Below are positions 1,058 to 35,279 of a stretch of 37,917 bases of DNA, piece after piece. A model generated the notes under the pieces. It was not told the DNA's origin. It made no database searches and worked only from the letters and a program-made list of their open reading frames with translations. The position numbers and the translations under genes were made by a program. How positions within the stretch are numbered: the first letter of the stretch is position 1; each line of letters starts with the position of its first letter. The DNA comes from a virus, in the IMG/VR virus record IMGVR_UViG_3300025759_000250, positions 1 to 37,917 of that record, one strand, 5' to 3'.

Positions 1058-1570
1058 ATGAATATATTTTGCATTGATAAAGACCCCTTACAATCAGCAA
1101 AATGGCTATGTGACCAACATTGTAACAAGATGGTATTGGAATCAGCACAAATGGTAGCAAACTGTTTTCCTTTAGATGTATTAGAAGATGCACCAAAGAC
1201 ACAAAAAGGTACACCTAGAAAATATAGCTATTGGAAACACCCTTGCTCCATATGGGCGAGAGAAACTATGGCTAACCTATCTTGGCTTTTACTACACTCA
1301 TTGGAGATGGAAGAAGAGCGTAAAGACAGAGGTTTCAATCCACACTTTTCAGCCGACTTTCTAAAGTGGGCTTTACTTAATATGCATCGCAGTAGTAATG
1401 ACCCAAGTTCAGAGCAAACAGAATTTGCCATTGCTATTAGCGACCATATGACTTGTCGTCAGCACCCCGATTTTGACAAATCAGATGTAGTCGGCAAGTA
1501 CAGATTATATTATAAATTAGATAAACCATTTGCTAGATGGACTAGCAATAAACCAAATTGGATAAAATGA
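1058..1570 (+). CDS. Conserved phage protein, possibly Pyr_excise (DenV)-related
   Basis: A 170-aa protein whose opening (MNIFCIDKDP, then CDQHCNKMVLESAQM) resembles the start of many phage proteins of the type MNIFxLDxDPxxxAxxHCDKHVxKMxLExxQ, some of which are annotated as pyrimidine-dimer glycosylase-like (Pyr_excise, T4 DenV-related). Shared features here are the Cys/His pair at residues 18-22, the K-M-x-L-E-x-x-Q helix, a KHPCSIWAR segment where the family typically has HPC-x-x-W, and a C-terminal Y-Y-K-L-DKPFARW region. If the relation holds, it would repair UV damage or bind DNA. I recognise the pattern from memory and could not align it, so the enzymatic role is tentative. The next gene starts within its stop codon. 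Confidence 0.55.
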   Translation: MNIFCIDKDPLQSAKWLCDQHCNKMVLESAQMVANCFPLDVLEDAPKTQKGTPRKYSYWKHPCSIWARETMANLSWLLLHSLEMEEERKDRGFNPHFSADFLKWALLNMHRSSNDPSSEQTEFAIAISDHMTCRQHPDFDKSDVVGKYRLYYKLDKPFARWTSNKPNWIK

Positions 1571-10326: not shown

Positions 10327-13300
10327 TTAATTGTATTTATTACTACCGTATATAAGACTATTTAAAGCATCACCGTAATCTGGTTGCTTGAAACTTCCTA
10401 ATTGTACATTACTTGACCCAAAACTACTGTTTTGGTTACCATAGTAATTAGGTGTAGTAAATGCATTACCTTTTTTGCCATCAAAGAATGTGCCAAGTCC
10501 GCTTACTAAATCACCTACACCTCTAGTTATATTTCTCATCTGTGATGGGAAACTAGCTATTGAATCTAGTGCGTTAGTAACATCTTCTATGCCCAATACT
10601 AATGATTCATATTTATTAGGTTCATTTACCCTATCTACTAATGCCATTTCTCTTCTATATTCATTAAGCTGTCTATTTAGTAATGCCTCTTGTTCTTGGT
10701 TAGCAAAATTACTTGTACCAATATCTACCATATCAGCGAAACCAAGAGGTGTATTCATTGCATTTATTCCTGCCTCATATGGTGATTGTCTTGTAATCTT
10801 ACCTGCAATATCACCAGTAATAAATCTCTCAGAGTTCATTACATTCTGTATAGATGTGCTGAGATTTTGCTCATTCTGTCTCACGACATCATCCATTAAG
10901 TTATATTGCTCAAATCTAGTTATATCATCACTTGGTCTACCTCTAGATTTACCAAATGCAAATGCACCCTCTGATGCTAAATATTGCTCTCTAGTAGATG
11001 GACCTCCTAATGCACGAGACTCAAATCTATCCATCTGTGCCTCTAGCTTACCGAGTGCTTTAGATGCAGATGGTTGCGAGCCCATCATCGCATCTCTATA
11101 ATCAGCACCTAATAGATTAATATCATCTATATCAGTTTTTGTCTGTTCTCTCCTAATCTCAGCACCTAATTGTTGTGACCTAGGAGCAAGTTCTTCTTGT
11201 ACATCTAAGCTAAGGTTACCAGAGTCAATCTGATACTCTCTAAGATACTGTTGTACAGTAGGATGTGTTATACCAAATCCTCTTACTTCCTCAGCTTTTT
11301 CTGCACCGTGAGTATATCTTATTATACTATATACTGGATCGTTTTCTTTTATTTCTGCCATATTTACAAAGCTTCCGTTTATTATACCATTTGCGTCAAC
11401 GTTACTTTCCGCTGATGTGCCTGTTTGGTCAGGGAAAGTTACGTTCTGATTATTACCATCAAAAGGATTACCATCATTATTTTGTCCATCATCAAAACCA
11501 TTATCACCATTGTTATTTGAAGCATCATTTTGATTAGGGTCATCTGGGTAATCATCTAAATAATTGGGAATCCCATCTCCATCTGTATCTATAGTATTTG
11601 GGTCTACTGATACATTAGGGTCATTTATATCAAAATCAAATGCATCAAAGACACCATCTCCATCCGTATCGGTGGTGTTAGGGTCTGTTTGTACATCAGC
11701 ATTATTAGGGTCAAAATCGAATGCATCCATAACGCCATCACCGTCTGTATCTGTGACATCTTCGTTTAATGGATATTCATCTGAGTTGTCTCCTTTACCA
11801 TCGTTATCTTGGTCTTCCCATTCTGTACCATCGTTAGGAAAGCTGTCTATGCTATCTGCATATCCATCTCCATCTGAATCATATTTTAAATCAGGATTAT
11901 TAGGGTCAAAATCTGCATTATCTCCTACACCGTCACCATCTGTGTCAATGGATTCATTTGGGTCTTCAGGAAAATCATCAAAAGCATCAGCGACACCATC
12001 CTCATCAGCATCCAATACATCTTCATTTAATGGATACGGGTCAGAATTATCTCCTATACCATCTCCATCTTGGTCTTCTTGTTCATTAGGGTCTTCTGGG
12101 AAGCTATCTATACTGTCTGCATATCCATCACCATCGGTATCATATCTTAGGTCGGGGTTGTTGGGGTCGAAATCAGCATTATCCCCTACACCATCTCCAT
12201 CTGTATCTACAGATTCTGTCGGGTCATCTATAAAAACATCGAATGCGTTAGCAACACCGTCACCGTCATCATCTAAAACATCTTCATTTAATGGATACGG
12301 GTCGCTATTATCACCAATACCGTCTCCGTCAGAATCTTCAGACTCATTAGGGTCATCTATAAAGGCATCTAAATCATCTATAACCCCATCATTATCCTTA
12401 TCAAATGTACTTGGGTCTTCTACATTATCCCCTAAACCGTCACCGTCTTCATCCTCCCACTCGTCAGGATTATTTGGAAATAAGTCTTCATTATCTCCTC
12501 TGCCATCACCATCAGAGTCTACTGTTTCATTAGGGTTTTCTGGAAAGGCATCGAAAGCGTTAGCAACTCCATCGCTATCATCATCTAAAACATCTTCGTT
12601 TAATGGGTATGGGTCAGAATTATCACCAATGCCATCTCCATCAGAGTCTTCAGACTCTGTAGGGTCGTCTTTGAAGCTGTCTAAATCATCAATGACACCA
12701 TCATTGTCTCTGTCGAATGTACTTGGGTCTTCCTCATTGTCTCCTAAACCATCACCATCTTCATCTTCCCATTCATTAGGATTATTTGGGAACTGGTCGC
12801 TATTATCACCATAACCATCACCATCAGTATCTGTCGTCTCATTCGGGTTTAAAGGAAACTGGTCTGAGTTGTCGCCTACTCCATCTCCGTCTTGGTCTTC
12901 TGCCTCATTAGGGTCTTCTGGGAAATCATCTATCTCATCTGCGTAGCCATCTCCGTCAATATCAGAACTAAACGTTGGGTCATCTGGGAAGTCGTCTGCT
13001 CTATCGCCAACACCATCACCGTCACTATCTTTAGTCTCTAGTGGGTCTTCAGGGAACTCATCCTCGTTATCTCCAACCCCATCTTCATCCATATCATTCC
13101 ACTCATCAGCATCATCAGGGAATGCATCTGTATTATCCCCTATACCATCGCCATCTCTATCTGATTGTTCTCTTTCATTTAATGGAAAAGCATCTGCATT
13201 ATCGCCAACACCATCCCCATCAGAATCTTGTATTTCATTAGGGTCATCGTCAAAGGCATCCTCGTTGTCTCCAACCCCATCCCCATCACTATCTTTCGTC

Positions 13301-16300
13301 TCATTTGGGTCATCATCAAATGCATCCTCGTTATTTCCTACACCATCTCCGTCAGAATCTAATGTTTCTGTTGCATCATCAGGGAATGCGTCTGCGTTGT
13401 CACCTACTCCATCTGCATCAGAATCTTTTATCTCATTAGGATTATACGGAAATACATCTTCATTATCTCCTGTACCATCACCATCAGAATCTGTATCTTC
13501 ATCTGGGTCATTCGGAAAATCATCTATCTCATCAGGGGTATTATCTCCGTCAGTATCTAAATCGTATCTCTCGTCATCAGGGAAATCATCTATCTCATCT
13601 GGAACAGTATCACCATCTCTATCACTAAAGTAGTCAGGGTCGTCAGGGAAGTCATCTGCATTATCCCCTACACCGTCCCCATCAGAATCAGTTGTCTCAC
13701 TTGGGTCTATTGGGAAGTCATCCTCATTATCTCCTACTCCGTCAGAATCTTGGTCTTCCCATTCATCAGCATCGTTAGGGAAATCGTCTATACTATCATC
13801 ATAGCCATCCCCATCCGTATCGGTGTCGAAATTAGGGTCATCTGGAAAATCATCTGCATTATCACCCACACCGTCTCCATCGGAGTCAGTAGTCTCTGAT
13901 GAATCTTCAGGGAAATCATCATAAAAATCTGCTGTTCCGTCTCCGTCTGTATCATATTTAGCATTTGGGTCATCATCAAACTCATCTTCATTGTCCCCTA
14001 GTCCGTCTCCATCCGAGTCTATAGTTTCATCAGGGTCATTGGGGAAATCATCTTCATTATCTCCTAACCCATCTCCATCAGAGTCTATGGTTTCATCAGC
14101 ATCATCTGGGAACATATCTTCGTTGTCACCCATTCCATCTCCGTCACTATCAACTGTTTCATCAGGGTCGTCTGGGAACTCATCAGTATTATCTCCTACT
14201 CCATCCCCGTCTGAGTCAGTTGTCTCATTAGGGTCATCATCGAAAGCATCTGCATTGTCGCCCACTCCGTCTCCATCCGAGTCAGTTGTCTCATTAGGGT
14301 CGTCTATAAATTGGTCGCTATTATCACCTACACCGTCTCCATCGGTATCTGTCGTCTCATTCGGGTCGTCTATAAAGGCATCTGTATTGTCCCCTACGCC
14401 ATCGCCATCCGTATCGGTGGTTTCAGTCGGGTCTTCTGGGAAATCGTCTTCTGGGTCATCTACGCCATCATTATCGAAGTCTAGAGCGAACTCACCATCT
14501 TCATTATCTCCAATGCCATCACCATCTTGGTCTTCTGCTTCATTCGGGTCATTAGGGAACTCATCTATTTCATCTGCATAACCGTCACCATCTATATCTG
14601 AACTAAATTCAGGGTCATCTGGGAAGTCATCGGAATTATCTCCAACTCCATCTCCATCTGTATCTTTCCATTCATCTGGGTCTGTAAAGAAAGCATCTTC
14701 ATTATCGCCTACTCCATCACCATCTATATCATCCCATTCATTTGGGTCATCAGGAAACTCATCTTCTGCATCTATAGTACCATCATTATCTCTATCATTA
14801 GGATATGGGTCTTCACTACTATCGCCTAAACCGTCAAAATCTAAATCTTCAAATTCGTTAGGATTATTAGGGAAATCATCTAAATTATCACCAACACCGT
14901 CTCCATCTGTATCAGTTTGTTCTAGTGGGTCTTCTGGGAAATCATCTAAGTTATCGCCTACTCCATCTCCGTCAGTATCTGTTTGTTCTAAACTGTCGTA
15001 AGGAAAAGCATCTAATTCATCTGCTACACCATCTTGGTCAGTATCTGTGTCATAATTAGGGTCATCTGGAAAGTCATCCTCAGAATCTACAGTACCATCA
15101 TTATCTCTATCATCTAAATATTCATCTATAAAGTCATCAATACCATCGTTGTCAGCATCCCCTAACATAATATTAGGGTCATCGGGAGCTACATCATCTT
15201 GGTCATATACTCCATCGTTATCTTCATCGTGTATACCTAATCTTTTTTCTTCCGATATAAGGAAAGCGTCAAAATCCTCTCGTATAACCTCTTCTGGGTC
15301 GTATGGCATAGATGAAGGGTCATAAGGATTGAATCCGTAATCTCTAGTACCGAATTGATTTAAATAAGTATATGCTTCACCTTTTGTTATAGTACCATTA
15401 CGAACCATCTCAGCAAGTTTTGTATATTTTTCACTTAAACTTGCATATGGAGATATATCCTCAACACCCCTTAATGGAGCAGAAATTGACCCCTTTACTG
15501 GTACTTCTATGTTTTCACCTGTTGCTTCGTTATATGCATCTACTGCATCTTGCATAGCAGTATTATATATCTCATCATTGAAGAATGACATATTGTAAGC
15601 AAAATCATTGAATTCATTTATCGCACTAAAATTATCATATCTTGGGTCAGTAGCAGAAACTACAAAATCAGGTAAGGTATAGATTTGTTCAAAATCAGAA
15701 TCTAAAGGTATATTAGCTATACCACCCTCTGTAATAAAATCATAATCAGAGTTATTTGTTATACCATTTGCGAAATCATTAACGTAATCACTTGCTTTCT
15801 CATCATCCCAATTAGGATACATACTTTCGATATCAATCTCATTTAGGATATCTTGGCTTATTACAAATCCATTTGATAGTTCATAACCATCCTCTGTATT
15901 AGCCATATTATTGGCTAATTCTTGAAGGAAAGCATATGCCTGAGCATCATTTAAACCATAAATACTCGTACCAAAGTTGGATTCTATTGCCTCGTTTATA
16001 GCGTCTAAGCCTAGTTCTGTAACATTTTCTGTATTTATATTACTATAAAGCTCAGCTTGTATTTCTTCATTGCCATTAACTAAATTAATCCAAATATTTC
16101 TTAAATCATTTAAATCCTCTGGGTTAAAGTTTTCTGGGTCGTATCCAGCATCTTTGATAGCATTGTAATATTCACTAGCACTTCTAGGTCCTGCTAAATG
16201 TCCATATGCCCCCAGTATATTCGATGGTAAATCTACAATAGGTACACCATCCACAGTCCCAATCTGCATTGGGTCTCCACCACTAAATACTGCATCAAAT

Positions 16301-18309
16301 ATCCTATGAGATAATATAGGGGAAAATACTCTTTGCATTTTGAAGCCTGTATTCTTGAAGAATTGCTTAACGTTTGCTAATGCACCACGAATACCACCAG
16401 CTTCTAAATCTTCTTCATATGTATCATAACTTCCAGATTCTGCTATTTTTTGGAAAGTGCCATCTTTTTGCATTCTTCCTATTTGGTCAAACAAGTCTCC
16501 TGATGTTTCAGCATTTATGATACTATCAATGAAGTTATCACCACCTTCTATATAGTTTCTACCTGTGGGTAAAGTTGCATCTAATAGACCCGCAGGAACA
16601 AAAGGTTTTATGAAACTTAATGCATCTTCTATTTTATTAAATGCACCTCCACTTATCTCATTTAACCATACTGCTAAAGCATCTCCAACATACAAATTTG
16701 GAGGGTCGATATTAACATTTGCTACATCGCCACCTGTTAGGGTATTGTAAATATCTATACCAGTATTGGCTAATTTATTAGCAAAATTAGCAAAATTATT
16801 TATTGTGAAATTTATACCTTCTTGAGAAGCTAATAAAGCTGTCCCTTTTAACCCTCCAGATATAAGGTCACCCGCTGTTGCTAATAACCAAAGACTTTCA
16901 TGTCTTTCCCTATTGCCTGTTAAGCTTGGTGCAAAACCACCAGAGAGGTCATATGTTTGAATATTAGCCTCTTCTATCTTTTGGTTTAGTTCTTCTGGAC
17001 TAAAGTCTAATGCCTCATTCCACATACTATTTATGAAATTTTCTACATTAGGAGTGCTTTCGTAAGTACCATCTTCGTTTTCTTCAATATTAATATAATA
17101 TTGATATTCTGCACTATTGACATCTAAGCCCATGAGATATGACCCAAAAGAACTATCAGGAGTTATCTCAGGGGGAATTATCTCATCTGTTTGTTGTCCA
17201 GTCTCAGGGTCTACCGCATATTCATATTCTCTAATACCAAATAATTTTTCTCTAGCATCAAGTAATTCATTTTCTAATTCTTGTAATTTTTCTTGCCTAA
17301 CTGGCAAATCTTTATCGAATCCACGCTTATCTCCCCTATCTAAAAATTCTTTATAGTCTCGTAATCTCTTAATAGCTTGAGCATATTCAGCTTTCTCACG
17401 ATCCATTAACTCCTTAGTACCTAATTTCGATTGCCTATCATCTGTTGTACCATCAATTAAATCCTCTAATGTGCCTATATCGTTATCATAGAAGTCAGCT
17501 AGACTGTTATATAACTCTTGGTCGTGCCACATCTCATCAATGAAATCACGGTCATATCCCTCATTTTCCAAGAAATCATCATAGCGATGCATATCTTGTA
17601 AATCGGCTTCTGTTATATTTGGTGTTACTACAAAGTCAGGTAATTCATAATATGGTAAATCTTCATTATAATCCATTGCTTCATTAGCAATGAGTGCCTC
17701 ATCTATATTTGATATATCGTCCCTATTTAAAAAAGAATCACCTGCTTGGTCATTCCAGTTTTTTGGTAGTTCTGGTATATTGAAATTTTCTGGATTGTAA
17801 TAACTATCAGGGTCTAAATATTTTTCAGTATCTACAAAACCTCTATCGTTAAAGTCATCTAGTACTTCAAAGCCCAACTCTTCAGCCATGCCATAGTCTA
17901 GACCTAGGTCTAATCCCATTTCAAAACCTAATCCGTAAACATATGGGTCTTGTTCAAATCCATACATATCGATTTCATCGAAATCGTAAATCTCACCCAT
18001 CTCATCGTAATTACCTATATTAAATGAATAAAAATCATCTGATGATAGGTCGAAATCTACTAGGTCTTGTGTTAACTGAGATGCCTGATAAATTTCAGGC
18101 ATATTGTCGAAATCCCAACCTTCCCAGTTATCTATATCTGAATCACTAACATCTGGTCCAGCGTTAACACCACTATTGCCCTGATTATTAAGGAAATCAT
18201 CTAGAGACCCTTGTGGACCATTAAAATGCATAATAAACTTATTCTTAACTAAATAGTTAAAAATAAGTCTATCTAATTTTAAAAATAAACTATATACAGA
18301 TTTCAACAT
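10327..18309 (-). CDS. Giant virion protein with about 57 thrombospondin type 3 repeats, 2660 aa
   Basis: Three regions are visible. Residues 1-1020 are acidic, Asn/Tyr/Phe-rich and hold two LPDFVV motifs (near 222 and 905). Residues about 1023-2256 are some 57 thrombospondin type 3 units built on DxDGDGVGDNxD then FPDDPxE, each an EF-hand-like calcium site. Residues 2260-2660 are Gln/Asn/Arg-rich and helical, like phage internal or ejection proteins. It lies between the fibre-like gene and the two ejection-type genes, so it is probably a virion part, perhaps a calcium-stiffened rod or adhesin. Start uncertain: ATG 18309 forms TAATG with the gene before it, but its first 26 residues are basic and hydrophobic, unlike the rest. 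ATG 18231 (MHFNGPQGS) gives 2,634 aa and sits just after a hairpin. Confidence 0.75.
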   Translation of the reverse strand: MLKSVYSLFLKLDRLIFNYLVKNKFIMHFNGPQGSLDDFLNNQGNSGVNAGPDVSDSDIDNWEGWDFDNMPEIYQASQLTQDLVDFDLSSDDFYSFNIGNYDEMGEIYDFDEIDMYGFEQDPYVYGLGFEMGLDLGLDYGMAEELGFEVLDDFNDRGFVDTEKYLDPDSYYNPENFNIPELPKNWNDQAGDSFLNRDDISNIDEALIANEAMDYNEDLPYYELPDFVVTPNITEADLQDMHRYDDFLENEGYDRDFIDEMWHDQELYNSLADFYDNDIGTLEDLIDGTTDDRQSKLGTKELMDREKAEYAQAIKRLRDYKEFLDRGDKRGFDKDLPVRQEKLQELENELLDAREKLFGIREYEYAVDPETGQQTDEIIPPEITPDSSFGSYLMGLDVNSAEYQYYINIEENEDGTYESTPNVENFINSMWNEALDFSPEELNQKIEEANIQTYDLSGGFAPSLTGNRERHESLWLLATAGDLISGGLKGTALLASQEGINFTINNFANFANKLANTGIDIYNTLTGGDVANVNIDPPNLYVGDALAVWLNEISGGAFNKIEDALSFIKPFVPAGLLDATLPTGRNYIEGGDNFIDSIINAETSGDLFDQIGRMQKDGTFQKIAESGSYDTYEEDLEAGGIRGALANVKQFFKNTGFKMQRVFSPILSHRIFDAVFSGGDPMQIGTVDGVPIVDLPSNILGAYGHLAGPRSASEYYNAIKDAGYDPENFNPEDLNDLRNIWINLVNGNEEIQAELYSNINTENVTELGLDAINEAIESNFGTSIYGLNDAQAYAFLQELANNMANTEDGYELSNGFVISQDILNEIDIESMYPNWDDEKASDYVNDFANGITNNSDYDFITEGGIANIPLDSDFEQIYTLPDFVVSATDPRYDNFSAINEFNDFAYNMSFFNDEIYNTAMQDAVDAYNEATGENIEVPVKGSISAPLRGVEDISPYASLSEKYTKLAEMVRNGTITKGEAYTYLNQFGTRDYGFNPYDPSSMPYDPEEVIREDFDAFLISEEKRLGIHDEDNDGVYDQDDVAPDDPNIMLGDADNDGIDDFIDEYLDDRDNDGTVDSEDDFPDDPNYDTDTDQDGVADELDAFPYDSLEQTDTDGDGVGDNLDDFPEDPLEQTDTDGDGVGDNLDDFPNNPNEFEDLDFDGLGDSSEDPYPNDRDNDGTIDAEDEFPDDPNEWDDIDGDGVGDNEDAFFTDPDEWKDTDGDGVGDNSDDFPDDPEFSSDIDGDGYADEIDEFPNDPNEAEDQDGDGIGDNEDGEFALDFDNDGVDDPEDDFPEDPTETTDTDGDGVGDNTDAFIDDPNETTDTDGDGVGDNSDQFIDDPNETTDSDGDGVGDNADAFDDDPNETTDSDGDGVGDNTDEFPDDPDETVDSDGDGMGDNEDMFPDDADETIDSDGDGLGDNEDDFPNDPDETIDSDGDGLGDNEDEFDDDPNAKYDTDGDGTADFYDDFPEDSSETTDSDGDGVGDNADDFPDDPNFDTDTDGDGYDDSIDDFPNDADEWEDQDSDGVGDNEDDFPIDPSETTDSDGDGVGDNADDFPDDPDYFSDRDGDTVPDEIDDFPDDERYDLDTDGDNTPDEIDDFPNDPDEDTDSDGDGTGDNEDVFPYNPNEIKDSDADGVGDNADAFPDDATETLDSDGDGVGNNEDAFDDDPNETKDSDGDGVGDNEDAFDDDPNEIQDSDGDGVGDNADAFPLNEREQSDRDGDGIGDNTDAFPDDADEWNDMDEDGVGDNEDEFPEDPLETKDSDGDGVGDRADDFPDDPTFSSDIDGDGYADEIDDFPEDPNEAEDQDGDGVGDNSDQFPLNPNETTDTDGDGYGDNSDQFPNNPNEWEDEDGDGLGDNEEDPSTFDRDNDGVIDDLDSFKDDPTESEDSDGDGIGDNSDPYPLNEDVLDDDSDGVANAFDAFPENPNETVDSDGDGRGDNEDLFPNNPDEWEDEDGDGLGDNVEDPSTFDKDNDGVIDDLDAFIDDPNESEDSDGDGIGDNSDPYPLNEDVLDDDGDGVANAFDVFIDDPTESVDTDGDGVGDNADFDPNNPDLRYDTDGDGYADSIDSFPEDPNEQEDQDGDGIGDNSDPYPLNEDVLDADEDGVADAFDDFPEDPNESIDTDGDGVGDNADFDPNNPDLKYDSDGDGYADSIDSFPNDGTEWEDQDNDGKGDNSDEYPLNEDVTDTDGDGVMDAFDFDPNNADVQTDPNTTDTDGDGVFDAFDFDINDPNVSVDPNTIDTDGDGIPNYLDDYPDDPNQNDASNNNGDNGFDDGQNNDGNPFDGNNQNVTFPDQTGTSAESNVDANGIINGSFVNMAEIKENDPVYSIIRYTHGAEKAEEVRGFGITHPTVQQYLREYQIDSGNLSLDVQEELAPRSQQLGAEIRREQTKTDIDDINLLGADYRDAMMGSQPSASKALGKLEAQMDRFESRALGGPSTREQYLASEGAFAFGKSRGRPSDDITRFEQYNLMDDVVRQNEQNLSTSIQNVMNSERFITGDIAGKITRQSPYEAGINAMNTPLGFADMVDIGTSNFANQEQEALLNRQLNEYRREMALVDRVNEPNKYESLVLGIEDVTNALDSIASFPSQMRNITRGVGDLVSGLGTFFDGKKGNAFTTPNYYGNQNSSFGSSNVQLGSFKQPDYGDALNSLIYGSNKYN
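11540..15240. repeat. Thrombospondin type 3 coding repeat tract, about 57 units of about 66 bp
   Basis: Tandem degenerate units, mostly 22 codons (66 bp) but with indels, encode DxDxDGxGDN...FPxDPxE. Read on the plus strand, each shows a core such as CCATCTCCATC or CCGTCACCATC. Neighbouring copies differ largely at third codon positions, so the protein pattern is kept while the DNA has drifted. Higher-order duplications occur between 11.75 and 12.8 kb. The lack of constant repeat length and unique spacers rules out a CRISPR array. Confidence 0.92.
18238..18267 (-). promoter_or_regulatory. 14-bp AT-rich hairpin at the start of the giant gene
   Basis: CTTATTCTTAACTA (18238-18251) and TAGTTAAAAATAAG (18254-18267) are complementary at 13 of 14 positions with two A between. 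The hairpin ends 6 nt before the ATG at 18231 and lies inside the extended frame starting at 18309. It may control initiation of the giant gene or stabilise or process the mRNA. Confidence 0.45.
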
Positions 18310-21580: not shown

Positions 21581-21891
21581 TAAGCTATAGGTCTTCTAGG
21601 TGCAGAAGCGTCTGGTCTCATGTACATCTCATCTGACATGGGAGTTATATCAAATTCACCCCTAGGTCTAGTTCTAGAAAAAGCCTGTTGTGGAGGCATC
21701 TGTGTTTCCCTTGGTGCATTTCTAGAAGCTCTCATGTTCCTAGCTGTTACAGGAGGTCTTCCTGTGTTACCACTCATCATTCTATTATTCATCCTTCTAT
21801 TGAGGGATGCAGGGTTAGGTAAATTTCCATTTCTGCGGTCTGTACGCTTCATAATAGATTTACCTTGGGGCATATGATTAGGTGAGTGCAT
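21580..21891 (-). CDS. Basic, disordered small protein, 103 aa
   Basis: MHSPNHMPQGKSIMKRTDRR... is rich in Arg, Asn, Met and Pro and poor in hydrophobic residues, so probably unfolded alone. Its start overlaps the previous stop (TAATG at 21889-21893) and its stop overlaps the nozzle start. It belongs to a set of very basic small proteins in this part of the operon. A role in binding DNA or the tail channel is possible but not shown. Confidence 0.55.
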   Translation of the reverse strand: MHSPNHMPQGKSIMKRTDRRNGNLPNPASLNRRMNNRMMSGNTGRPPVTARNMRASRNAPRETQMPPQQAFSRTRPRGEFDITPMSDEMYMRPDASAPRRPIA

Positions 21892-21989
21892 TATTTCTTT
21901 TTTCCTTTCATCATTGCTCGACCTTTAGCTTTAGCTTTTTTTGATGGTCTACCAACTTTACTTCCGTATGTTCCTTTTCCGAATGGCAT
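21891..21989 (-). CDS. Tiny Lys/Gly-rich protein, 32 aa
   Basis: MPFGKGTYGSKVGRPSKK... ends MMKGKKK. An unusually good Shine-Dalgarno, AGGAGG, lies 8 nt before the ATG, and those six bases are also the Arg-Arg codons of the upstream PEP-CTERM protein. Its stop overlaps the next ATG. Short proteins starting M-P-x-G-K-G-T-Y-G-S are familiar from marine phages, usually unannotated. Function unknown; the charge suggests nucleic-acid or membrane-surface binding. Confidence 0.6.
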   Translation of the reverse strand: MPFGKGTYGSKVGRPSKKAKAKGRAMMKGKKK

Positions 21990-21991
21990 AA

Positions 21992-22270
21992 TTATTTCCT
22001 CCTTTTAATTAATGTGTATAACAATACCGCAAATCCAGCAAATAGAACATATGTTGAAGGTTCTGGTATTGCTAAATCAGCAGATAGTCTAAAATCTACT
22101 TCATCCCAATTATACTGTACTCCCTCGTACAATAATCCATCGTACTCAAATCTAGCCCATTCAGGTAGAGATGGTACATAAAAATAATTTAAATCTGTAT
22201 TTATACTAATAGACTCCCATTGTGGGTCTGGTTCTAGTATTAATTCTGGGTATGTAAGTTCGTGACTCAT
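21992..22270 (-). CDS. PEP-CTERM sorting-signal protein, 92 aa
   Basis: The C-terminus has the full tripartite PEP-CTERM signal: IPEPST at residues 68-73 (Pro69-Glu70-Pro71), a hydrophobic helix YVLFAGFAVLLYTLI (74-88) and the basic tail KRRK at the very end. In bacteria this signal is recognised by exosortase (EpsH/XrtA) and linked to exopolysaccharide or biofilm surface export. The N-terminal 67 residues are acidic and aromatic-rich (EPDPQWESI, YVPSLPEWARF) and show no N-terminal signal peptide, which normal substrates have. It is ATGA-coupled to a 50-aa membrane protein and lies near the holin. It may be a decoy, an exosortase substrate placed in the envelope, or an acquired host fragment. 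The motif is clear; the role is unknown. Confidence 0.75.
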   Translation of the reverse strand: MSHELTYPELILEPDPQWESISINTDLNYFYVPSLPEWARFEYDGLLYEGVQYNWDEVDFRLSADLAIPEPSTYVLFAGFAVLLYTLIKRRK

Positions 22271-22419
22271 TTCTTAAAAATATCTTTAAATTCTTTTAGT
22301 AACTTATTTATTATATTATTCTTAGGTAAGAACATTGCTATAATAGATATTATACCAACATAGGCAAGACCCATAGCCATGAGGTCATCTTTATAATTAT
22401 TTAGTATGTATTCTATCAT
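22267..22419 (-). CDS. Single-pass membrane protein, 50 aa
   Basis: MIEYILNNYKDDLMAMGLAY... has one membrane segment (about residues 15-31, LMAMGLAYVGIISIIAMF) followed by a Lys-rich amphipathic end (LLKEFKDIFKK). The start overlaps the 272-aa gene's stop by ATGA and its own stop overlaps the PEP-CTERM start the same way. Size, topology and place close to a holin make it a candidate lysis accessory protein (holin partner, antiholin or spanin-like), without sequence proof. Confidence 0.6.
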   Translation of the reverse strand: MIEYILNNYKDDLMAMGLAYVGIISIIAMFLPKNNIINKLLKEFKDIFKK

Positions 22420-23234
22420 TGTACTGGAGATACTGGTCTAATGCTTGAATGAGGCTTTATCTCATCGCCCATTGGCTCAAAAGGTGTTTCTACTATAGGT
22501 AATTCAGAGTTGACATTACTTGATTTTGCCTCAGAATCAGATGATGAATTACTTTCTGTTTCTTGAGACTCTGGCTTACCTTCAGTTTTTTGTTGTTGGT
22601 CTGACTCTTGCGTACCTTTGTTATCTTTTTCTGAATCGCTATTTTTAGATGAATTTTGCTCTTTTTGTTGTTGCTCTGTCTTTTGTGACTCTTGTGATTT
22701 ATCAGTTTGTTGTTGCTGATCGTTTTGAGCGGACTTTTCGGAGGAAGAATTATTGGAAGAAGCAGAAGTTCCTTGTTTGGTGTCCGAAGTCTCACCAGCT
22801 GGTTGAGAAGTCTGTTGTAGTTCGGAAACCTCAGCAACCTTCTCAGCAATAATCTCTTGTCCCCATATATGTAGATTATCGAAATCTACAAAGGAATCAA
22901 TGAAGTGTGGTACTTCAAACCTTTCTTCTATAACGTCTTGTGCTACCTCAGCTACAAAAACCTCAGTATAATCTTTAGCTAAATCTACTTGTGTAACAGC
23001 AGAAGAGCCTATAGCTATAGTACCAGCAGTACCTAGCTGTGCTACTTTGTCTACAACAGGTAGACTTTTTATTTGCTCAACAAGAGACTTTTTAAGCTGT
23101 TTACTACCTTCTTCAGCAGTTCTACGGACTTCCTTAATACTGTCTTTAATGTGCTCAGAATTGCCTTCATCCAAGATTTCGGACAAAGAATCACGCAATT
23201 CCCTGAGTTTATTTTTGGCAGTTTTGTTATCCAT
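22416..23234 (-). CDS. Helical protein with long Gln/Ser/Glu/Lys disordered tail, 272 aa
   Basis: Residues 1-60 form charged amphipathic helices (KLRELRDSLSEIL, then IKEVRRTAEEGSKQLKKSL). Residues about 65-90 are weakly hydrophobic (VDKVAQLGTAGTIAIGSSAV) and might contact a membrane. Residues about 145-245 are a low-complexity Q/S/E/K/N tract, and the last 25 are Pro-containing. A 118-aa alternative-frame ORF in this tract is an artefact of the composition. ATGA-coupled to the 50-aa membrane protein and 24 nt after the holin. It could be a lysis or envelope factor; unknown. Confidence 0.55.
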   Translation of the reverse strand: MDNKTAKNKLRELRDSLSEILDEGNSEHIKDSIKEVRRTAEEGSKQLKKSLVEQIKSLPVVDKVAQLGTAGTIAIGSSAVTQVDLAKDYTEVFVAEVAQDVIEERFEVPHFIDSFVDFDNLHIWGQEIIAEKVAEVSELQQTSQPAGETSDTKQGTSASSNNSSSEKSAQNDQQQQTDKSQESQKTEQQQKEQNSSKNSDSEKDNKGTQESDQQQKTEGKPESQETESNSSSDSEAKSSNVNSELPIVETPFEPMGDEIKPHSSIRPVSPVQ

Positions 23235-23258
23235 TTACATATATTGCATTTCATATTA

Positions 23259-23663
23259 TTATTTAACCGTTGATGAGCCAAAATAGAATGATACAATGGT
23301 GATGATTGATGTTCTGATTTCTGGTAAGATGACATATCCATGTAGGGTTTCATAAGTTGTTCCTTTTATAAATCCAAACCATTTGCTGTATTCTTTCGCT
23401 ACAGTAACACCATCGCCACTATGTGCCAGTATAAATGGTGCTATTACAACACCAAATAATACTACGACTACGATGAACCTTCGTACCCAAGCACCTCCTG
23501 CTCCGCCTCTTTTGTCTGCTTCATTAGCACTCTGTGTATGTGCCTCAGACTTCTTAATTAGGTTATCTACATTTGCTTGCTGTGCAGATACCATCGTTCC
23601 GATGAGTTTGAATATAAATCCACTCATCCCTCCTCCGAGCATTGCTAGTAATTCTGTTGGCAT
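23259..23663 (-). CDS. Holin, 3-TM type (GTA_holin-like)
   Basis: 134 aa with three hydrophobic segments: about residues 5-28 (LLAMLGGGMSGFIFKLIGTM), 63-82 (FIVVVVLFGVVIAPFILA) and 113-130 (RTSIITIVSFYFGSS). Between the first two is a polar helix (QQANVDNLIKKSEAHTQSAN), and an RRF pair precedes TM2. The C-terminal FYFGSS resembles the FYFG ending of the gene-transfer-agent 3-TM holin family. Holins pierce the inner membrane to time lysis. TAATG coupling to the 42-aa gene; the small membrane proteins on both sides fit a lysis cluster. Confidence 0.7.
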   Translation of the reverse strand: MPTELLAMLGGGMSGFIFKLIGTMVSAQQANVDNLIKKSEAHTQSANEADKRGGAGGAWVRRFIVVVVLFGVVIAPFILAHSGDGVTVAKEYSKWFGFIKGTTYETLHGYVILPEIRTSIITIVSFYFGSSTVK

Positions 23664-30009: not shown

Positions 30010-30627
30010 TTAATATAGCCCGTGCAAATTATGCTCTTCTGTTTTTTGCTTAAATAATTCCATATACTTTTTGGTAGCATCTATCCTCCTATCTAATGAT
30101 TTATCATTCTCTGGTCGCATAAAATGATGCAAAAAATATTCATTAATACCCTCTACTGTTGGTTGATATATATATTTTTCGCCTGTGTATTTATGTTTGC
30201 CCTCCTGTGCTATACCATTTAGTAAATTAAGCATTCTTTTTCCGTGTGTACCGCCATTATCTTCATATGGTTTAGTACCCTTACGGAGCATATCGACTAT
30301 ATAAATTATATTGCCATAGTGGTCATCCTGCAATCCAGCATCTGCTAGATATTCCTCGAACCTATCTCTAGTATTGCCAGTATACTGAAATAAACCTTTA
30401 CCTTTTCGCCTATTGTAAGTACCTACCTCTACCTTTTCAGGAGAAAATGTATCCCAAGATTCTACCTCAATGGTAGACATTAATAATGCATCGAACACAG
30501 GACCAAGACCAATATCCATATGAAATATCTCATTGAATGTTCTCTGGAAGTTCTCATCCCTACTCATATTTCTGCTCGTTCTTTGAGCCAATCCTTGAGT
30601 TGATATGTTTTGTGGTTGATTAAGCAT
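30010..30627 (-). CDS. Lysozyme-like muramidase, virion or lysis enzyme, 205 aa
   Basis: I chose ATG 30627 (MLNQPQNIST), 8 nt inside the portal end; an earlier in-frame ATG would add 45 residues lying wholly within the portal gene. Residues 50-65 (MSTIEVESWDTFSP) followed by KGKGLFQYTGNTRDRFEEYL (75-94) resemble the glutamate-then-GxxQWTGxRR core of phage tail-lysozyme-type muramidases, with Glu54 or Glu56 as candidate acid. The rest is helical (IIYIVDMLRKG, YFLHHFMRPEND). No signal peptide. Its place among head genes hints at a virion-borne wall hydrolase, but it is also the only endolysin candidate here. Confidence 0.6.
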   Translation of the reverse strand: MLNQPQNISTQGLAQRTSRNMSRDENFQRTFNEIFHMDIGLGPVFDALLMSTIEVESWDTFSPEKVEVGTYNRRKGKGLFQYTGNTRDRFEEYLADAGLQDDHYGNIIYIVDMLRKGTKPYEDNGGTHGKRMLNLLNGIAQEGKHKYTGEKYIYQPTVEGINEYFLHHFMRPENDKSLDRRIDATKKYMELFKQKTEEHNLHGLY

Positions 30628-32710
30628 TGATGCCTTGTGTATTGACATTACCCATAGCAGAAGGGTCAGTACCAATCCTACCAATTTGTGCATTCTCTTC
30701 TTGTGTAAGCATGAATTGATATTGTTCGGCATACTTCTTGATTCTATTCGCAAAAGCTTCATCTGTTTGCAATCTTCTAGCTACATCAGGTTGTTGTGAA
30801 TATTGTCCTAAGATATTTAATGCTAAAGAAGCCCCGTTAGGTCTAGCTGGCATCTCAATACCCGCAAATATTTTAGCTAAATCATCAGTAACATTCTTAA
30901 CCATTTCTTGTTGTGCTACTTCCTTAGGCTGTAAAATAGAATCTGCCATAACTGGGTCGATGGAATTAGCTAATACTTCAAGTAGTAAGTCTATATTTAC
31001 CCTACCATTTCTATCTAGTTTAGTAATCTCAATCATTTGACCAAGTTTCTTTTCTTGTATCTCACCCTGTGCGTTCAATACATCATATGATATCATAACA
31101 TCGTACATCTCATTTGGATTACCTTTGTTAAATGTCATATTATCAGGACTACCAGTTACTCTAAAGAATATCTCATCTGGTCCAAATCTTTGGAAACACT
31201 TAAAACACATCTTTAGAACATCTGCACAATGCGTGAGATACTTGTCTACTAAGAATTGTCTTCGTATATTAGATAATGGGTTCTCCATATCTAGCCCACA
31301 CATAGCATCCGCTTGAGTTTCTAGCGTTTCTTCTATCTCTATAGAACCTGTAGGCAATGGTGGTGTCGGACCAAACTCTAAATCACCCTTTCTTCGGTAT
31401 GGAATCATTCTTGCTGGTCCATAATCTGAAGGTGCTTGCCCTACTGGGTGCATTATCGGTGGTAAAGTGGCTAGACTATTCCTGTCTATGCGTGAGTCTC
31501 TTTCTACTTTTACTTGATTTTGTATTCCCCGTAATAGATCAGGAATAGTCGTAGTATCATAAAGTCTTTTACTATCCTCCGAAAGCTTAGTTACAACAAC
31601 TGGGAAGTCCTCGTAACCATTCATGAGCTCAAATTTAGCATATCCTTGTGCTTCTTCATTCCCACTAAATTCTTTGTGGAAGATTGTCTCATATATACCC
31701 TCTGCATTATCTTCTGGGTCTATGAGTCTTTGATAACCATGTACTATTTCTATTAGTTCATTAGCTTCATACACAGTATCCATAATAGAGCTACTTCTTC
31801 TGCCCTCTTGATTGACTTCTATGCTGTCAACATTAACGCCTCTGTATTTATCTATAACATAATGAACAAAATCTTCATCCCAGCCATCAGTAATTATTTT
31901 ATTTTCTAATTCCTGTGCTGTATAATACGTTCTCCAAAAGCAGTATGGTGCTCTTTGTGGGTCTGTAACATACGGAGGGAAGAAGAAATCACCATCTGGT
32001 GCTAGTGTTCTCACCTCTGGAGCATCTACTTGTCTTTTAACAACTGGTAGTTCTGCATAACCTGTCTCTCTCAGTTGCTTTAATGCTTTCTTTGCTCTCT
32101 TCTCATTGATGCCAGCAAATGTAGCACCTAATTGTTGTATTAATAAATCCTCTGATGTCTCATCTAAGAACATCTGTGCTGTCTCTGGAGACATTTGTGC
32201 TATCTGATTGATATCTAATTTTTGTAGAAATGTTCTATCTTCTCTTAACCATCCCACATATGTAATTAATATACCTCTTTCTAGTAAATAATTAGCACCT
32301 AGCTCCATCTCTTTGTTAAATCTTGGAATATATCCCGATGTTACCATCCATTTTAAGAAAGATGATACTGTTTTACCCCGTCCGATATCACCAATGTTGG
32401 TAGGGAATGCTTTGACATTTGCTCTGAGCATAGATGTTATGAACAATGACACGAGTCTAGTTATTCTCTCATCTATGGTATGTGCCTCCATATCTGCTGA
32501 ACCTTCCCAAGGGAATGCATCAGGACCATGTTTTCTATGGTCACGAGATTTACCTGCCCAATGATTTCGTCTATCATCATATGATGTGCGACACAAATCA
32601 AAATAGGTCTCTAACTCTGTTACTGTTTCACTATATGCATACCTTAATGTGTTGATATCGGGCTTGTCACTAAAGTATGTCAAAGACTTTGAAATATTAT
32701 CACTATCCAT
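30620..32710 (-). CDS. Portal protein, podovirus type, 696 aa
   Basis: It follows the TerL module and has portal-like features: an N-terminal region with NHWAGKSRDHRKHGPDAFPW then EGSADMEAHTIDERITRLVS, a PPYVTDPQRAPYCFWRTYYT segment, and the VKVERDSRIDRNSLATLPPI then MHPVGQAP block typical of large phage portals. The C-terminal 150 residues are helical and Gln-rich (barrel and tail). The portal ring is the DNA gate, the TerL docking site and the nucleus for head assembly. Size (about 700 aa) fits P22/podovirus-like portals. Confidence 0.82.
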   Translation of the reverse strand: MDSDNISKSLTYFSDKPDINTLRYAYSETVTELETYFDLCRTSYDDRRNHWAGKSRDHRKHGPDAFPWEGSADMEAHTIDERITRLVSLFITSMLRANVKAFPTNIGDIGRGKTVSSFLKWMVTSGYIPRFNKEMELGANYLLERGILITYVGWLREDRTFLQKLDINQIAQMSPETAQMFLDETSEDLLIQQLGATFAGINEKRAKKALKQLRETGYAELPVVKRQVDAPEVRTLAPDGDFFFPPYVTDPQRAPYCFWRTYYTAQELENKIITDGWDEDFVHYVIDKYRGVNVDSIEVNQEGRRSSSIMDTVYEANELIEIVHGYQRLIDPEDNAEGIYETIFHKEFSGNEEAQGYAKFELMNGYEDFPVVVTKLSEDSKRLYDTTTIPDLLRGIQNQVKVERDSRIDRNSLATLPPIMHPVGQAPSDYGPARMIPYRRKGDLEFGPTPPLPTGSIEIEETLETQADAMCGLDMENPLSNIRRQFLVDKYLTHCADVLKMCFKCFQRFGPDEIFFRVTGSPDNMTFNKGNPNEMYDVMISYDVLNAQGEIQEKKLGQMIEITKLDRNGRVNIDLLLEVLANSIDPVMADSILQPKEVAQQEMVKNVTDDLAKIFAGIEMPARPNGASLALNILGQYSQQPDVARRLQTDEAFANRIKKYAEQYQFMLTQEENAQIGRIGTDPSAMGNVNTQGINA

Positions 32711-33118: not shown

Positions 33119-34776
33119 TAGTATCCCCCTTTATTTCTTAATGTTGCTTTTAGTTTATTTTTATCATAGTGATCTGGTCCTTCACCACCATTAGCCATGC
33201 GGAGATAACGAATCAGGTCAAAAAAGTCTTTTAATGCTTCATCGTTTTTACCATTGGAGTTGTAATTGATTAAACTATCTATAAGATTGCCACAATCCTC
33301 GTGGATGTAGCAAAGGGGTTTATTCACATTATCTATTTCCACATTCGGATTGTAGGTAAACCAATCATCTAGTGATGCTATACCTAAGCTTTCCATTCTA
33401 CCATCCGAGGGTACAAAGTTATACCCATAATCGTCAAATGATGTGAATAAGTCATCATTGTTTTCATTCTCCTTAGAGAAATACCTAGAGTCCCCGATTC
33501 TCTCAAATACTTCTATGTTGAGTTCATCCTCTATAGTCTTAAATAAGTCGCAGTATCCCTCTACGTTGTAGCCTAGCTTTTTAGAAGCAGGACCGTATCG
33601 CCATTTGGGATCGCCAAAGATTGCCCACTCTCCATGTGTATTACGGTCAGGGAATTCTCGCCTAATAAAGACCTCACCATTAGCATTAACTCCTGCCCAA
33701 ATGCAAGAGTAGTTTCTTGCTCCAGCGGGGTCAACCACTTGATAACAAGTAAATCGCTCCTTATCAGATATATCTGGAAAAGTTCTTCCGTATTTGTTTG
33801 GTTTTTCCGATAGTACATTAATTTCTGGTGTGAATAAAGGTAGGAGAGATGTCATAGACCTAACAGGTACACCATATGCTCTAACCAATATAGACTCTTC
33901 TGGTTTACCTCTGAGGTCTTTAGCTATTCTATCATACCCTCCAAATGGATTTTCGTCTGTATGTAGATAACATACTGATGCATCCATATTTGGGCTATAT
34001 TGCTCGATAGGAACTGGACGATTGTTAAGGAGTTCTGCCTCCTTAGTCTTTATAGTTTCCGCACCTTTTAGGTATTCTGCTATGAATGGTGTATAACCAT
34101 CAATAGGGGTAAAGCCTATAAGTAGCTTAGAGTCTCTAGTCGCCAATCTGAACCTTAATGTATTTACCAAACTTGCATCTCCTAGATACTCATCTAGCCA
34201 TGCACCTATATTGAGATACTTAGGTTGCTTAAACCCAAACTCGAATCCCTCAAGTATTGTCTGATTGTTAGTATATTGTGTATAAGTCTTGAAGTCTACC
34301 CTTGTCTTAGTATCAGGAAAGATAAAGCTACTGCCAGTAAACCCATTCTGCATACTAAAGTTGATATATCCCTCTATTCCCTTAGTCTTCTTCCTGAACT
34401 CTGTTGGCATCATCTCCCATATAGCAGACTGTTGAACCTTAACAGATGTATCAGCATTCTGACTGAAGCAAACTATATGACCATTTTCCGATTTGGTAAC
34501 AGCCTCCATAACTATCTTAGCACATCCAGTAGTTTTACCACTTCTATTACCACCAAGTGTTAGACACTCATTATATTTAGTTAACCCTTTTCGTATTCTA
34601 TCCCATCCCTCTAGGTCAAAACCATATCTAAGGGGGTCTTGCTGACTGAGCTCTATCTTCTTCTCGTGCAACCTGTGCATATCAGCTAGTAACTTAGGGT
34701 CGTGTTTAGCTAATAATAAGATATCCTCGTCAGAGGGAGTATCCATTAAGGGGTGTTTTGTAAAAGTAATCTCCAT
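33118..34776 (-). CDS. terL: Terminase large subunit
   Basis: 552 aa. The ATPase has Walker A at about residues 75-82 (GGNRSGKT) and Walker B near 187-195 (LNIGAWLDEYLG), followed by a coupling segment (LLIGFTPIDG). The nuclease half has an RNase H-like acidic set: VVDPAG near 350, RIGDSRYF near 430, and a late DFFDLIRYL near 525. It cuts the genome and pumps DNA into the head through the portal. TAATG overlaps join it to the methyltransferase before and the 127-aa gene after. Confidence 0.92.
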   Translation of the reverse strand: MEITFTKHPLMDTPSDEDILLLAKHDPKLLADMHRLHEKKIELSQQDPLRYGFDLEGWDRIRKGLTKYNECLTLGGNRSGKTTGCAKIVMEAVTKSENGHIVCFSQNADTSVKVQQSAIWEMMPTEFRKKTKGIEGYINFSMQNGFTGSSFIFPDTKTRVDFKTYTQYTNNQTILEGFEFGFKQPKYLNIGAWLDEYLGDASLVNTLRFRLATRDSKLLIGFTPIDGYTPFIAEYLKGAETIKTKEAELLNNRPVPIEQYSPNMDASVCYLHTDENPFGGYDRIAKDLRGKPEESILVRAYGVPVRSMTSLLPLFTPEINVLSEKPNKYGRTFPDISDKERFTCYQVVDPAGARNYSCIWAGVNANGEVFIRREFPDRNTHGEWAIFGDPKWRYGPASKKLGYNVEGYCDLFKTIEDELNIEVFERIGDSRYFSKENENNDDLFTSFDDYGYNFVPSDGRMESLGIASLDDWFTYNPNVEIDNVNKPLCYIHEDCGNLIDSLINYNSNGKNDEALKDFFDLIRYLRMANGGEGPDHYDKNKLKATLRNKGGY

Positions 34777-35279
34777 TATATCTCATTACCCCAGCAATCC
34801 CAGCCATCGTGCTTCTCTCTAGCAAATAGCTCTATCATAGGATTGTGAGACATCTCCTTTATTAAAGTTCTAGCTTCCTTAGGCTTCTTACTGTGCTTAG
34901 TCTTCTCTGCCCATAGCACACTTCTGACATTTCTCTTTATAGGTTTGAGGTTTCCCTTTACACCAAATAAACATATCTCATGTTGTCCCCTAAAATAATA
35001 GCCTAGACCAAAGCTTTCTTTTACCCATACGAAGTTAGTTACATACCTAAAGCCCCAAGACTCCATAACATCTAAACCATCCTTGAGAAAGTTGTTAGTA
35101 ACCCACATAAATAACCAACAATTATCATCGGCTATATCAGATACAGGTAGATTAGCTATATCTCCCGTCTTCATAAGACTATAGTGCCTATCAGCACCTC
35201 TCTTTATCTTACCACCACCAGCCTCTAACCAAGGTGGGTCAGCATATATAGTCTTATACTTCTTGTCGGGAAAGTTCAT
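34776..35279 (-). CDS. MT-A70 family N6-adenine DNA methyltransferase
   Basis: 167 aa. DPPW at residues 14-17 (IYADPPW) is the catalytic motif of MT-A70-type N6-adenine methyltransferases. WLFMWVTNNFL, FRYVTNFVWVKESFGLGYYF, GQHEICLFGVKG and the closing MIELFAREKHDGWDCWGNEI are also standard for the family, and the SAM pocket is formed by the IELFAR region. It has no separate target-recognition domain, so specificity is not readable. It sits between the TerS candidate and TerL with ATGA/TAATG couplings, so it is made with the packaging enzymes. Likely roles: protecting phage DNA from restriction or marking packaging sites. Confidence 0.88.
   Translation of the reverse strand: MNFPDKKYKTIYADPPWLEAGGGKIKRGADRHYSLMKTGDIANLPVSDIADDNCWLFMWVTNNFLKDGLDVMESWGFRYVTNFVWVKESFGLGYYFRGQHEICLFGVKGNLKPIKRNVRSVLWAEKTKHSKKPKEARTLIKEMSHNPMIELFAREKHDGWDCWGNEI

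What the first reader, a model, noticed from the sequence alone, without database searches (positions are those of the whole stretch)
21992..22270. Phage late operon encodes a protein with a complete PEP-CTERM sorting signal
The 92-aa product ends with IPEPST, a 15-residue hydrophobic helix and KRRK, the three-part signal recognised by bacterial exosortases. PEP-CTERM proteins belong to bacterial surface and exopolysaccharide systems; I know of no described role in phages. This one has no N-terminal signal peptide and sits in ATGA overlaps beside the holin and two small membrane proteins. It could be an exosortase decoy that blocks capsule or EPS export late in infection, a surface marker that stops superinfection, or a lysis factor that borrows host sorting. 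It also predicts an exosortase-bearing host.
Basis: partly seen in the sequence, partly recalled or inferred. Interest (0 to 1): 0.88.

Follow-up and report, generated by a model that had tools for sequence, protein, structure and literature searches.

The report
Phage protein with host-like PEP-CTERM tail
A family of marine phages, probably infecting Opitutales-type Verrucomicrobiota, carries next to its holin gene a conserved gene slot whose protein always ends in a tail that copies the host's own surface-sorting tag, so the phage apparently uses or targets the host's exosortase sorting system late in infection.

Summary
In detail: the 92-aa product (21992-22270, minus strand) ends in IPEPST, one transmembrane helix and KRRK, and passes the curated TIGR02595 cut-off. 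It is not chance. The gene is the third of a cassette (272-aa Ser/Gln-rich protein, 50-aa membrane protein, PEP protein) beside the holin. In 86 of 86 complete distinct proteins occupying this slot in IMG/VR contigs the product ends in (I/V)PE-x, a helix and basic residues; 56 have full PEP. P and E are the only invariant tail residues. The ectodomain is exchangeable: a short acidic one without signal peptide (as here), or an unrelated, exported beta-sandwich of about 200 aa with one, which shows that the motif faces the periplasm. Several indirect lines point to Opitutales hosts: a same-family phage contig in an Opitutae MAG with two exosortases and ten PEP-CTERM genes; PEPSTYxLxAG-coding sites in 8 of 145 Verrucomicrobiota genomes, all 8 in that order; none in 150 genomes of another phylum. 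Cleavage by exosortase is untested. The missing signal peptide and the drifting third proline mean it is not a textbook PEP-CTERM protein. Best reading: a late, envelope-anchored lysis/release protein that borrows the host sorting tail.

The parts
21992..22270 (-). PEP92: acidic 67-aa ectodomain without signal peptide plus PEP-CTERM-like tail
   Evidence: ORF and translation; 31 close viral homologues
21995..22069 (-). C-terminal tail IPEPSTYVLFAGFAVLLYTLIKRRK (residues 68-92): motif, helix, basic cluster
   Evidence: TIGR02595 17.5-19.1 bits against cut-off 16; AlphaFold helix 73-91
22267..22419 (-). TM50: 50-aa single-span membrane protein, ATGA overlap with PEP92 and with the 272-aa gene
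   Evidence: Adjacent to 58 of 59 PEP92-family genes; used as the anchor
22416..23234 (-). QS272: 272-aa protein with a helical, conserved N-terminal half, a Ser/Gln/Glu-rich low-complexity linker and a conserved C-terminus; no clear transmembrane segment (best KD19 about 1.0)
   Evidence: First gene of the cassette in all syntenic loci
23069..23254 (-). Out-of-frame overlapping ORF, 61 aa, CxxC plus cationic amphipathic helix, between the holin stop and the QS272 start
   Evidence: Present in 36 of 54 QS272 loci with a conserved start
23259..23663 (-). Probable holin, phrog_38283; 43% identical to a gene of Verrucomicrobia phage P8625
24041..24196 (-). 51-aa membrane protein upstream of DUF6321 and the holin; probable small lysis protein
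   Evidence: A hydrophobic 53-aa counterpart (MEEVITKSLVG...) lies directly upstream of the P8625 holin; C75C1 counterpart 29% identical
21891..21989 (-). 32-aa basic protein MPFGKGTYGSKVGRPSKKAKAKGRAMMKGKKK that bounds the cassette downstream; in phage C75C1 it follows the holin directly

Best explanation
PEP92 is a late phage envelope protein built on a host-type C-terminal sorting tail. (1) Its gene is coupled to TM50 and QS272 beside the holin (shown at sequence level). (2) The C-terminal helix inserts with the basic end in the cytoplasm, so that the acidic ectodomain and the PE(P) motif face the periplasm (inferred from charge in every family member and from slot homologues with a signal peptide). 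(3) The host exosortase, whose own substrates in Opitutales carry nearly the same tail, recognises the motif and holds, releases or hands on the ectodomain towards the outer envelope (inferred). (4) There it acts with QS272 and TM50 in the last step of infection, opening or remodelling the outer envelope or exopolysaccharide layer for lysis and release (inferred from the holin-linked late position and the absence of any spanin-like lipoprotein in the window).
For: Family-wide conservation of the tail: (I/V)PE in 86 of 86 complete distinct slot proteins, 56 with full PEP; P69 and E70 are 100% conserved while the rest of the tail varies. Modular ectodomain: short acidic or signal peptide plus beta-sandwich. 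Charge: ectodomain -8 to -24 and positive C-tail in all 43 distinct proteins examined. Cassette order kept, 52 of 59 with the 4-nt overlap, and it moves as a unit to either side of the holin. Host match: a phage contig with terL 59%, portal 70% and MCP 62% identity in an Opitutae MAG, which has 10 PEP-CTERM genes and 2 exosortases and tails such as VVPEPSTYALFAGAFVLMFAMQRRRR; PEPSTYxLxAG sites in 8 of 145 Verrucomicrobiota genomes, all 8 in the same order, reversed control 0, and 0 of 150 in another phylum (Fisher 1.6e-9 for 8/15 against 0/130). The phage profile itself finds PEP-CTERM tails in 15 of 87 genomes of that order and 0 of 90 control genomes. Holin relative in P8625, a phage of an Opitutae strain.
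Against: No signal peptide in this member, although Haft 2006 finds one in about 97% of PEP-CTERM proteins. The third proline has drifted in 30 of 86 slot proteins, mostly those with a signal peptide. Some members carry long C-terminal extensions after the helix (L023, L025, L038), atypical for exosortase substrates. The host assignment rests on MAG binning and tail similarity, not on infection; two cassette-less relatives of the holin fall in MAGs labelled Rickettsiales and Rhodobacteraceae. No function of QS272 or TM50 is known. Nothing here shows cleavage.
Confidence: 0.45

Rival explanations
1. Plain tail-anchored lysis regulator: PEP92 sits in the inner membrane next to the holin as an antiholin- or spanin-like partner. 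The PE(P)-helix-basic tail was copied from a host gene and serves only as a membrane anchor; exosortase is not involved.
For: Tight holin and TM50 linkage, sometimes a direct ATGA overlap with the holin (L058, L062); absence of a signal peptide; loss of the third proline and long C-tails in many members.
Against: P and E are the only invariant tail residues while the helix drifts freely, and PE survives exchange of the whole ectodomain; a mere anchor would not need them.
Confidence: 0.27
2. Superinfection exclusion or surface marking: the sorted ectodomain reaches the cell surface and masks or alters a phage receptor or the EPS layer, and may also stop progeny from sticking to debris.
For: Exchangeable ectodomain on a constant tail, as expected of a surface-exposed, diversifying factor; the alternative ectodomain models as a beta-sandwich whose weak fold matches include carbohydrate-binding modules and adhesins.
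Against: Late, holin-coupled position; the short ectodomain is strongly conserved rather than diversifying (dN/dS mostly 0.04-0.4); the model confidence is low (pLDDT 64).
Confidence: 0.16
3. Exosortase decoy or inhibitor: the tail occupies the host exosortase and blocks export of host PEP-CTERM proteins or EPS late in infection; variants lacking the third proline might bind without being cut.
For: Tail nearly identical to host substrates; PE kept while the third residue varies; many-to-one pairing of substrates and exosortase makes one enzyme a plausible target (PMC3237569).
Against: The ectodomain has invariant residues G45, Y53, W55, E57, R61 and the neighbours are always kept, which a decoy would not require; blocking sorting shortly before lysis gives little obvious gain.
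Confidence: 0.1

Closest known systems
PEP-CTERM / exosortase (EpsH, XrtA) sorting system, TIGR02595 / PF07589 with PF09721
   Same: Motif, transmembrane helix and basic cluster at the C-terminus; tail sequence nearly the same as Opitutales host substrates.
   Different: Encoded by a lytic-type phage beside its holin; no signal peptide in this member; the third proline is not required across the family; no exosortase is seen among the phage's genes.
Prophage-encoded sortase substrates such as SasX of staphylococci (own knowledge; papers that mention it as prophage-borne are listed)
   Same: Phage-borne protein with a C-terminal sorting signal read by a host transpeptidase.
   Different: Cargo of a prophage in a Gram-positive host, LPXTG/sortase, with signal peptide; here a late, lysis-linked phage gene in a host with an outer membrane and an exosortase-type signal.
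Phage-encoded envelope lipoproteins (T5 Llp; spanins Rz/Rz1 and unimolecular spanins; own knowledge)
   Same: Phage proteins that use host envelope-sorting routes, for exclusion or for outer-membrane disruption; spanins lie beside holin and endolysin.
   Different: No lipobox or signal peptide here; the anchor is C-terminal and of the PEP-CTERM type.

Membership tests
PEP-CTERM protein (TIGR02595 / PF07589) | C-terminal motif PEP, transmembrane helix, basic cluster | tested here: met
   IPEPST, helix 73-91, KRRK
PEP-CTERM protein (TIGR02595 / PF07589) | Score above the curated NCBIfam cut-off | tested here: met
   17.5 bits against 16; 19.1 bits in the genome-level search
PEP-CTERM protein (TIGR02595 / PF07589) | Score above the Pfam gathering score | tested here: not met
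   18.6 against 20.7 bits
PEP-CTERM protein (TIGR02595 / PF07589) | N-terminal signal peptide (about 97% of members, PMC1569441) | tested here: not met
   None in PEP92; a hydrophobic N-terminal signal is present in 32 of 86 distinct slot homologues, those with the other ectodomain
PEP-CTERM protein (TIGR02595 / PF07589) | Made in a cell with an outer membrane and an exosortase | tested here: inconclusive
   Likely Opitutales host; exosortase in 63 of 87 genomes of that order and 2 in the MAG that holds a relative of the phage; host not proven
PEP-CTERM protein (TIGR02595 / PF07589) | Exosortase-dependent cleavage or sorting | not testable with these tools
   Needs an exosortase mutant
Spanin (two-component or unimolecular) | Outer-membrane lipoprotein signal in one component | tested here: not met
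   No lipobox-bearing late gene in the window; the two pattern matches lie on the strand opposite to the genes there
Holin / antiholin | Membrane protein of the holin cassette that controls lysis timing | not testable with these tools
   Position fits; function untested

The most novel reading that the evidence does not exclude
A large group of marine verrucomicrobial phages exploits the host exosortase pathway: a dedicated, holin-linked gene slot carries exchangeable ectodomains on a constant tail that the host exosortase reads, giving the first viral substrates (or inhibitors) of exosortase and a new kind of late envelope or lysis factor.
Probability: 0.45. Interest if true: 0.86.

Novelty: new variant of a known kind. 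Interest (0 to 1): 0.7.

Why it matters
PEP-CTERM/exosortase sorting is widespread in environmental Gram-negative bacteria, yet its substrates and purpose are poorly understood. A phage that keeps this signal under strong selection in a short, compact gene offers a small, natural probe of exosortase function, gives a sequence handle for predicting exosortase-bearing hosts of uncultured marine phages, and suggests that envelope opening in Verrucomicrobiota may use parts other than classical spanins. The open-access papers searched here held no report of a phage-encoded exosortase signal, although that library is incomplete.

Tried and rejected
Chance match: rejected by family-wide conservation and by silence of TIGR02595 in P8625, C75C1 and six cassette-less relatives. 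Missed upstream start giving a signal peptide: rejected, a stop lies one codon upstream. Recent acquisition of a whole host gene: no relative of the ectodomain in genome contigs; in 87 genomes of the order the profile matches always run to the tail; the beta-sandwich ectodomain has no relative there either. Known phage family: no significant PHROG for PEP92, TM50 or QS272 and no significant INPHARED record. Structure: the PEP92 model is poor (pLDDT 61, pTM 0.29) and was not searched; the beta-sandwich model (pLDDT 64) gave no PDB match below E = 0.001 and one unnamed viral match. Host from the major capsid protein: uninformative, SU10-type capsids hit phages of many hosts. Host from the MAG labels of L119 and L120 (Rickettsiales, Rhodobacteraceae): not used; both are short contigs, and these genomes have no PEP-CTERM. 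RNA families and tRNAs: none in the window.

Full report
OBSERVATION. The window is an IMG/VR virus record of 37,917 bases. The ORF at 21992-22270 on the minus strand gives the 92 residues described. Its tail, residues 68-92, scores 17.5 bits with TIGR02595 against a curated cut-off of 16 and 18.6 with PF07589 against 20.7; searched over the whole record TIGR02595 gives 19.1 bits, E = 1.4e-4. No signal peptide is present or recoverable.

THE GENE BELONGS TO A CASSETTE. Scans of viral contigs returned 31 loci with close homologues. In these the order is holin, QS272 (272 aa), TM50 (50 aa), PEP92 wherever the contig reaches far enough. Of 59 PEP92-family genes, 58 lie next to TM50, 52 with the 4-nt ATGA overlap. 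In L058, L061, L062 and L063 the block lies just upstream of the holin instead, so it moves as a unit. Phage C75C1, the nearest annotated relative (terminase 73%, portal 69%, capsid 67% identity), has no cassette: its holin is followed directly by the small basic protein that in the window lies downstream of PEP92.

THE TAIL IS THE CONSTANT, THE ECTODOMAIN IS NOT. I took the gene that follows TM50 in every locus at hand: 88 distinct proteins. Two lack the motif, one a truncated ORF and one an inserted gene in L023, whose PEP92 follows later. All other 86 end in (I/V)PE-x, a hydrophobic helix and basic residues; x is proline in 56. Fifty-four have no signal peptide, like the window protein. Thirty-two have an N-terminal hydrophobic signal and an unrelated ectodomain of about 200 aa, modelled as a beta-sandwich between two helices (pLDDT 64). 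Its weak fold matches include carbohydrate-binding modules, adhesins and similar beta-sandwiches, none below E = 0.001. Because those versions look exported, the motif before their C-terminal helix should lie on the periplasmic face, which is where PEP-CTERM motifs and the proposed exosortase active site are placed (PMC1569441). The window protein should have the same topology: charge -13 before the helix and +4 after it, with the same sign pattern in all 43 proteins examined. That a 67-residue acidic N-tail crosses the membrane without a signal peptide is inference.

SELECTION. Among 33 distinct short-ectodomain proteins P69 and E70 are 100% conserved and P71 91%, while the helix residues vary; in the ectodomain G45, Y53, W55, E57 and R61 are invariant. 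Pairwise dN/dS is mostly 0.04-0.4 for ectodomain and tail alike. Both halves therefore matter, which speaks against a decoy that needs only the tail and against a bare anchor that needs no motif.

HOST. No infection data exist. Indirect lines agree. (a) The holin is 43% identical to one in P8625, which infects strain IMCC8625 of class Opitutae, related to Coraliomargarita. (b) An Opitutae MAG (G001) holds a contig of this phage family with terL 59%, portal 70% and capsid 62% identity, as well as a P8625-like contig. Terminase relatives occur in 12 of 388 genomes of that phylum and in 0 of 398 of the phylum of the Rhodobacteraceae-labelled MAG; apart from G001 the matches are weak. (c) That MAG has ten PEP-CTERM genes and two exosortases. 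(d) Its tails read VVPEPSTYALLGGLFALSFVAMRRRK or VVPEPSTYALFAGAFVLMFAMQRRRR, against LAIPEPSTYVLFAGFAVLLYTLIKRRK in the window and TVPEPSTYALLAGFAVLIFTMIKRRNK in L003. (e) DNA coding PEPSTYxLxAG occurs in 8 of 145 Verrucomicrobiota genomes, all 8 among the genomes drawn from the order of G001, never in the reversed-pattern control, and in 0 of 150 genomes of the other phylum. (f) The phage profile itself finds C-terminal tails in 15 of 87 genomes of that order and 0 of 90 controls; those inspected are host PEP-CTERM proteins. Exosortase is present in 63 of 87 genomes of the order. Binning of viral contigs is error-prone, so I put the host assignment at about 0.8. The tool does not name groups; I take the order of G001 to be Opitutales from its record title (uncultured Opitutae bacterium).

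MECHANISM. Shown at sequence level: cassette, ATGA overlaps, conserved tail, exchangeable ectodomain, match to the probable host's sorting signal. Inferred: topology, recognition by exosortase, role in the last step of infection. I favour an envelope-anchored lysis or release factor because the cassette is fixed beside the holin, because no lipobox-bearing late gene that could serve as an outer-membrane spanin was found in the window, and because QS272 has a long low-complexity linker that could bridge a gap. A plain anchor without exosortase remains the strongest rival, because the third proline is often lost and some members have long C-tails.

KNOWN OR NEW. PEP-CTERM sorting is known; searches of the open-access library held here turned up no paper on one encoded by a phage. 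The window protein fails one defining feature of PEP-CTERM proteins, the signal peptide (about 97% of members, PMC1569441; 'always' in PMC3237569), and narrowly fails the Pfam cut-off, so I do not file it as a standard member. I call it a phage-borne variant that works like one in its tail.

Noticed in passing
window 23069-23254, minus strand: A 61-aa out-of-frame ORF (MKCNICKWITKLPKINSGNC..., CxxC plus cationic amphipathic helix) starts between the holin stop and the QS272 start and runs inside QS272; 36 of 54 QS272 loci have it with a conserved start. A related 32-aa peptide stands alone about 155 nt after the holin in cassette-less phages, and a like sequence is fused to the PEP92 C-terminus in L023 and L025. 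Possibly a membrane-active lysis peptide encoded in overlap.
   Followed up: partly
window 10327-18309, minus strand: Giant 2660-aa protein with a long run of aspartate-rich DxDGDGVGDNxDxFPxDP repeats (thrombospondin type 3-like), probably calcium-binding; candidate tail or receptor-binding protein.
   Followed up: no
window 30010-30762, minus strand: Phage_lysozyme2 endolysin candidate whose ORF overlaps the portal gene by about 140 nt; an internal start MHKLVGLVLTLLLWVMSIHK would give a signal-anchor-like N-terminus.
   Followed up: no
L023:7452-8017: Two extra genes, each an N-terminal membrane helix plus coiled coil, are inserted between TM50 and PEP92 in this one locus.
   Followed up: no
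L119, L120 (contigs in MAGs labelled Rickettsiales and Rhodobacteraceae): L119 is a viral contig of this phage family and L120 carries a holin 60% identical; both sit in MAGs without PEP-CTERM. Either mis-binned or evidence that cassette-less relatives infect other hosts.
   Followed up: partly
window 1058-1570 (+) and 34776-35279 (-): Pyrimidine dimer DNA glycosylase and an MT-A70 methyltransferase, plausible for a surface-ocean phage.
   Followed up: no
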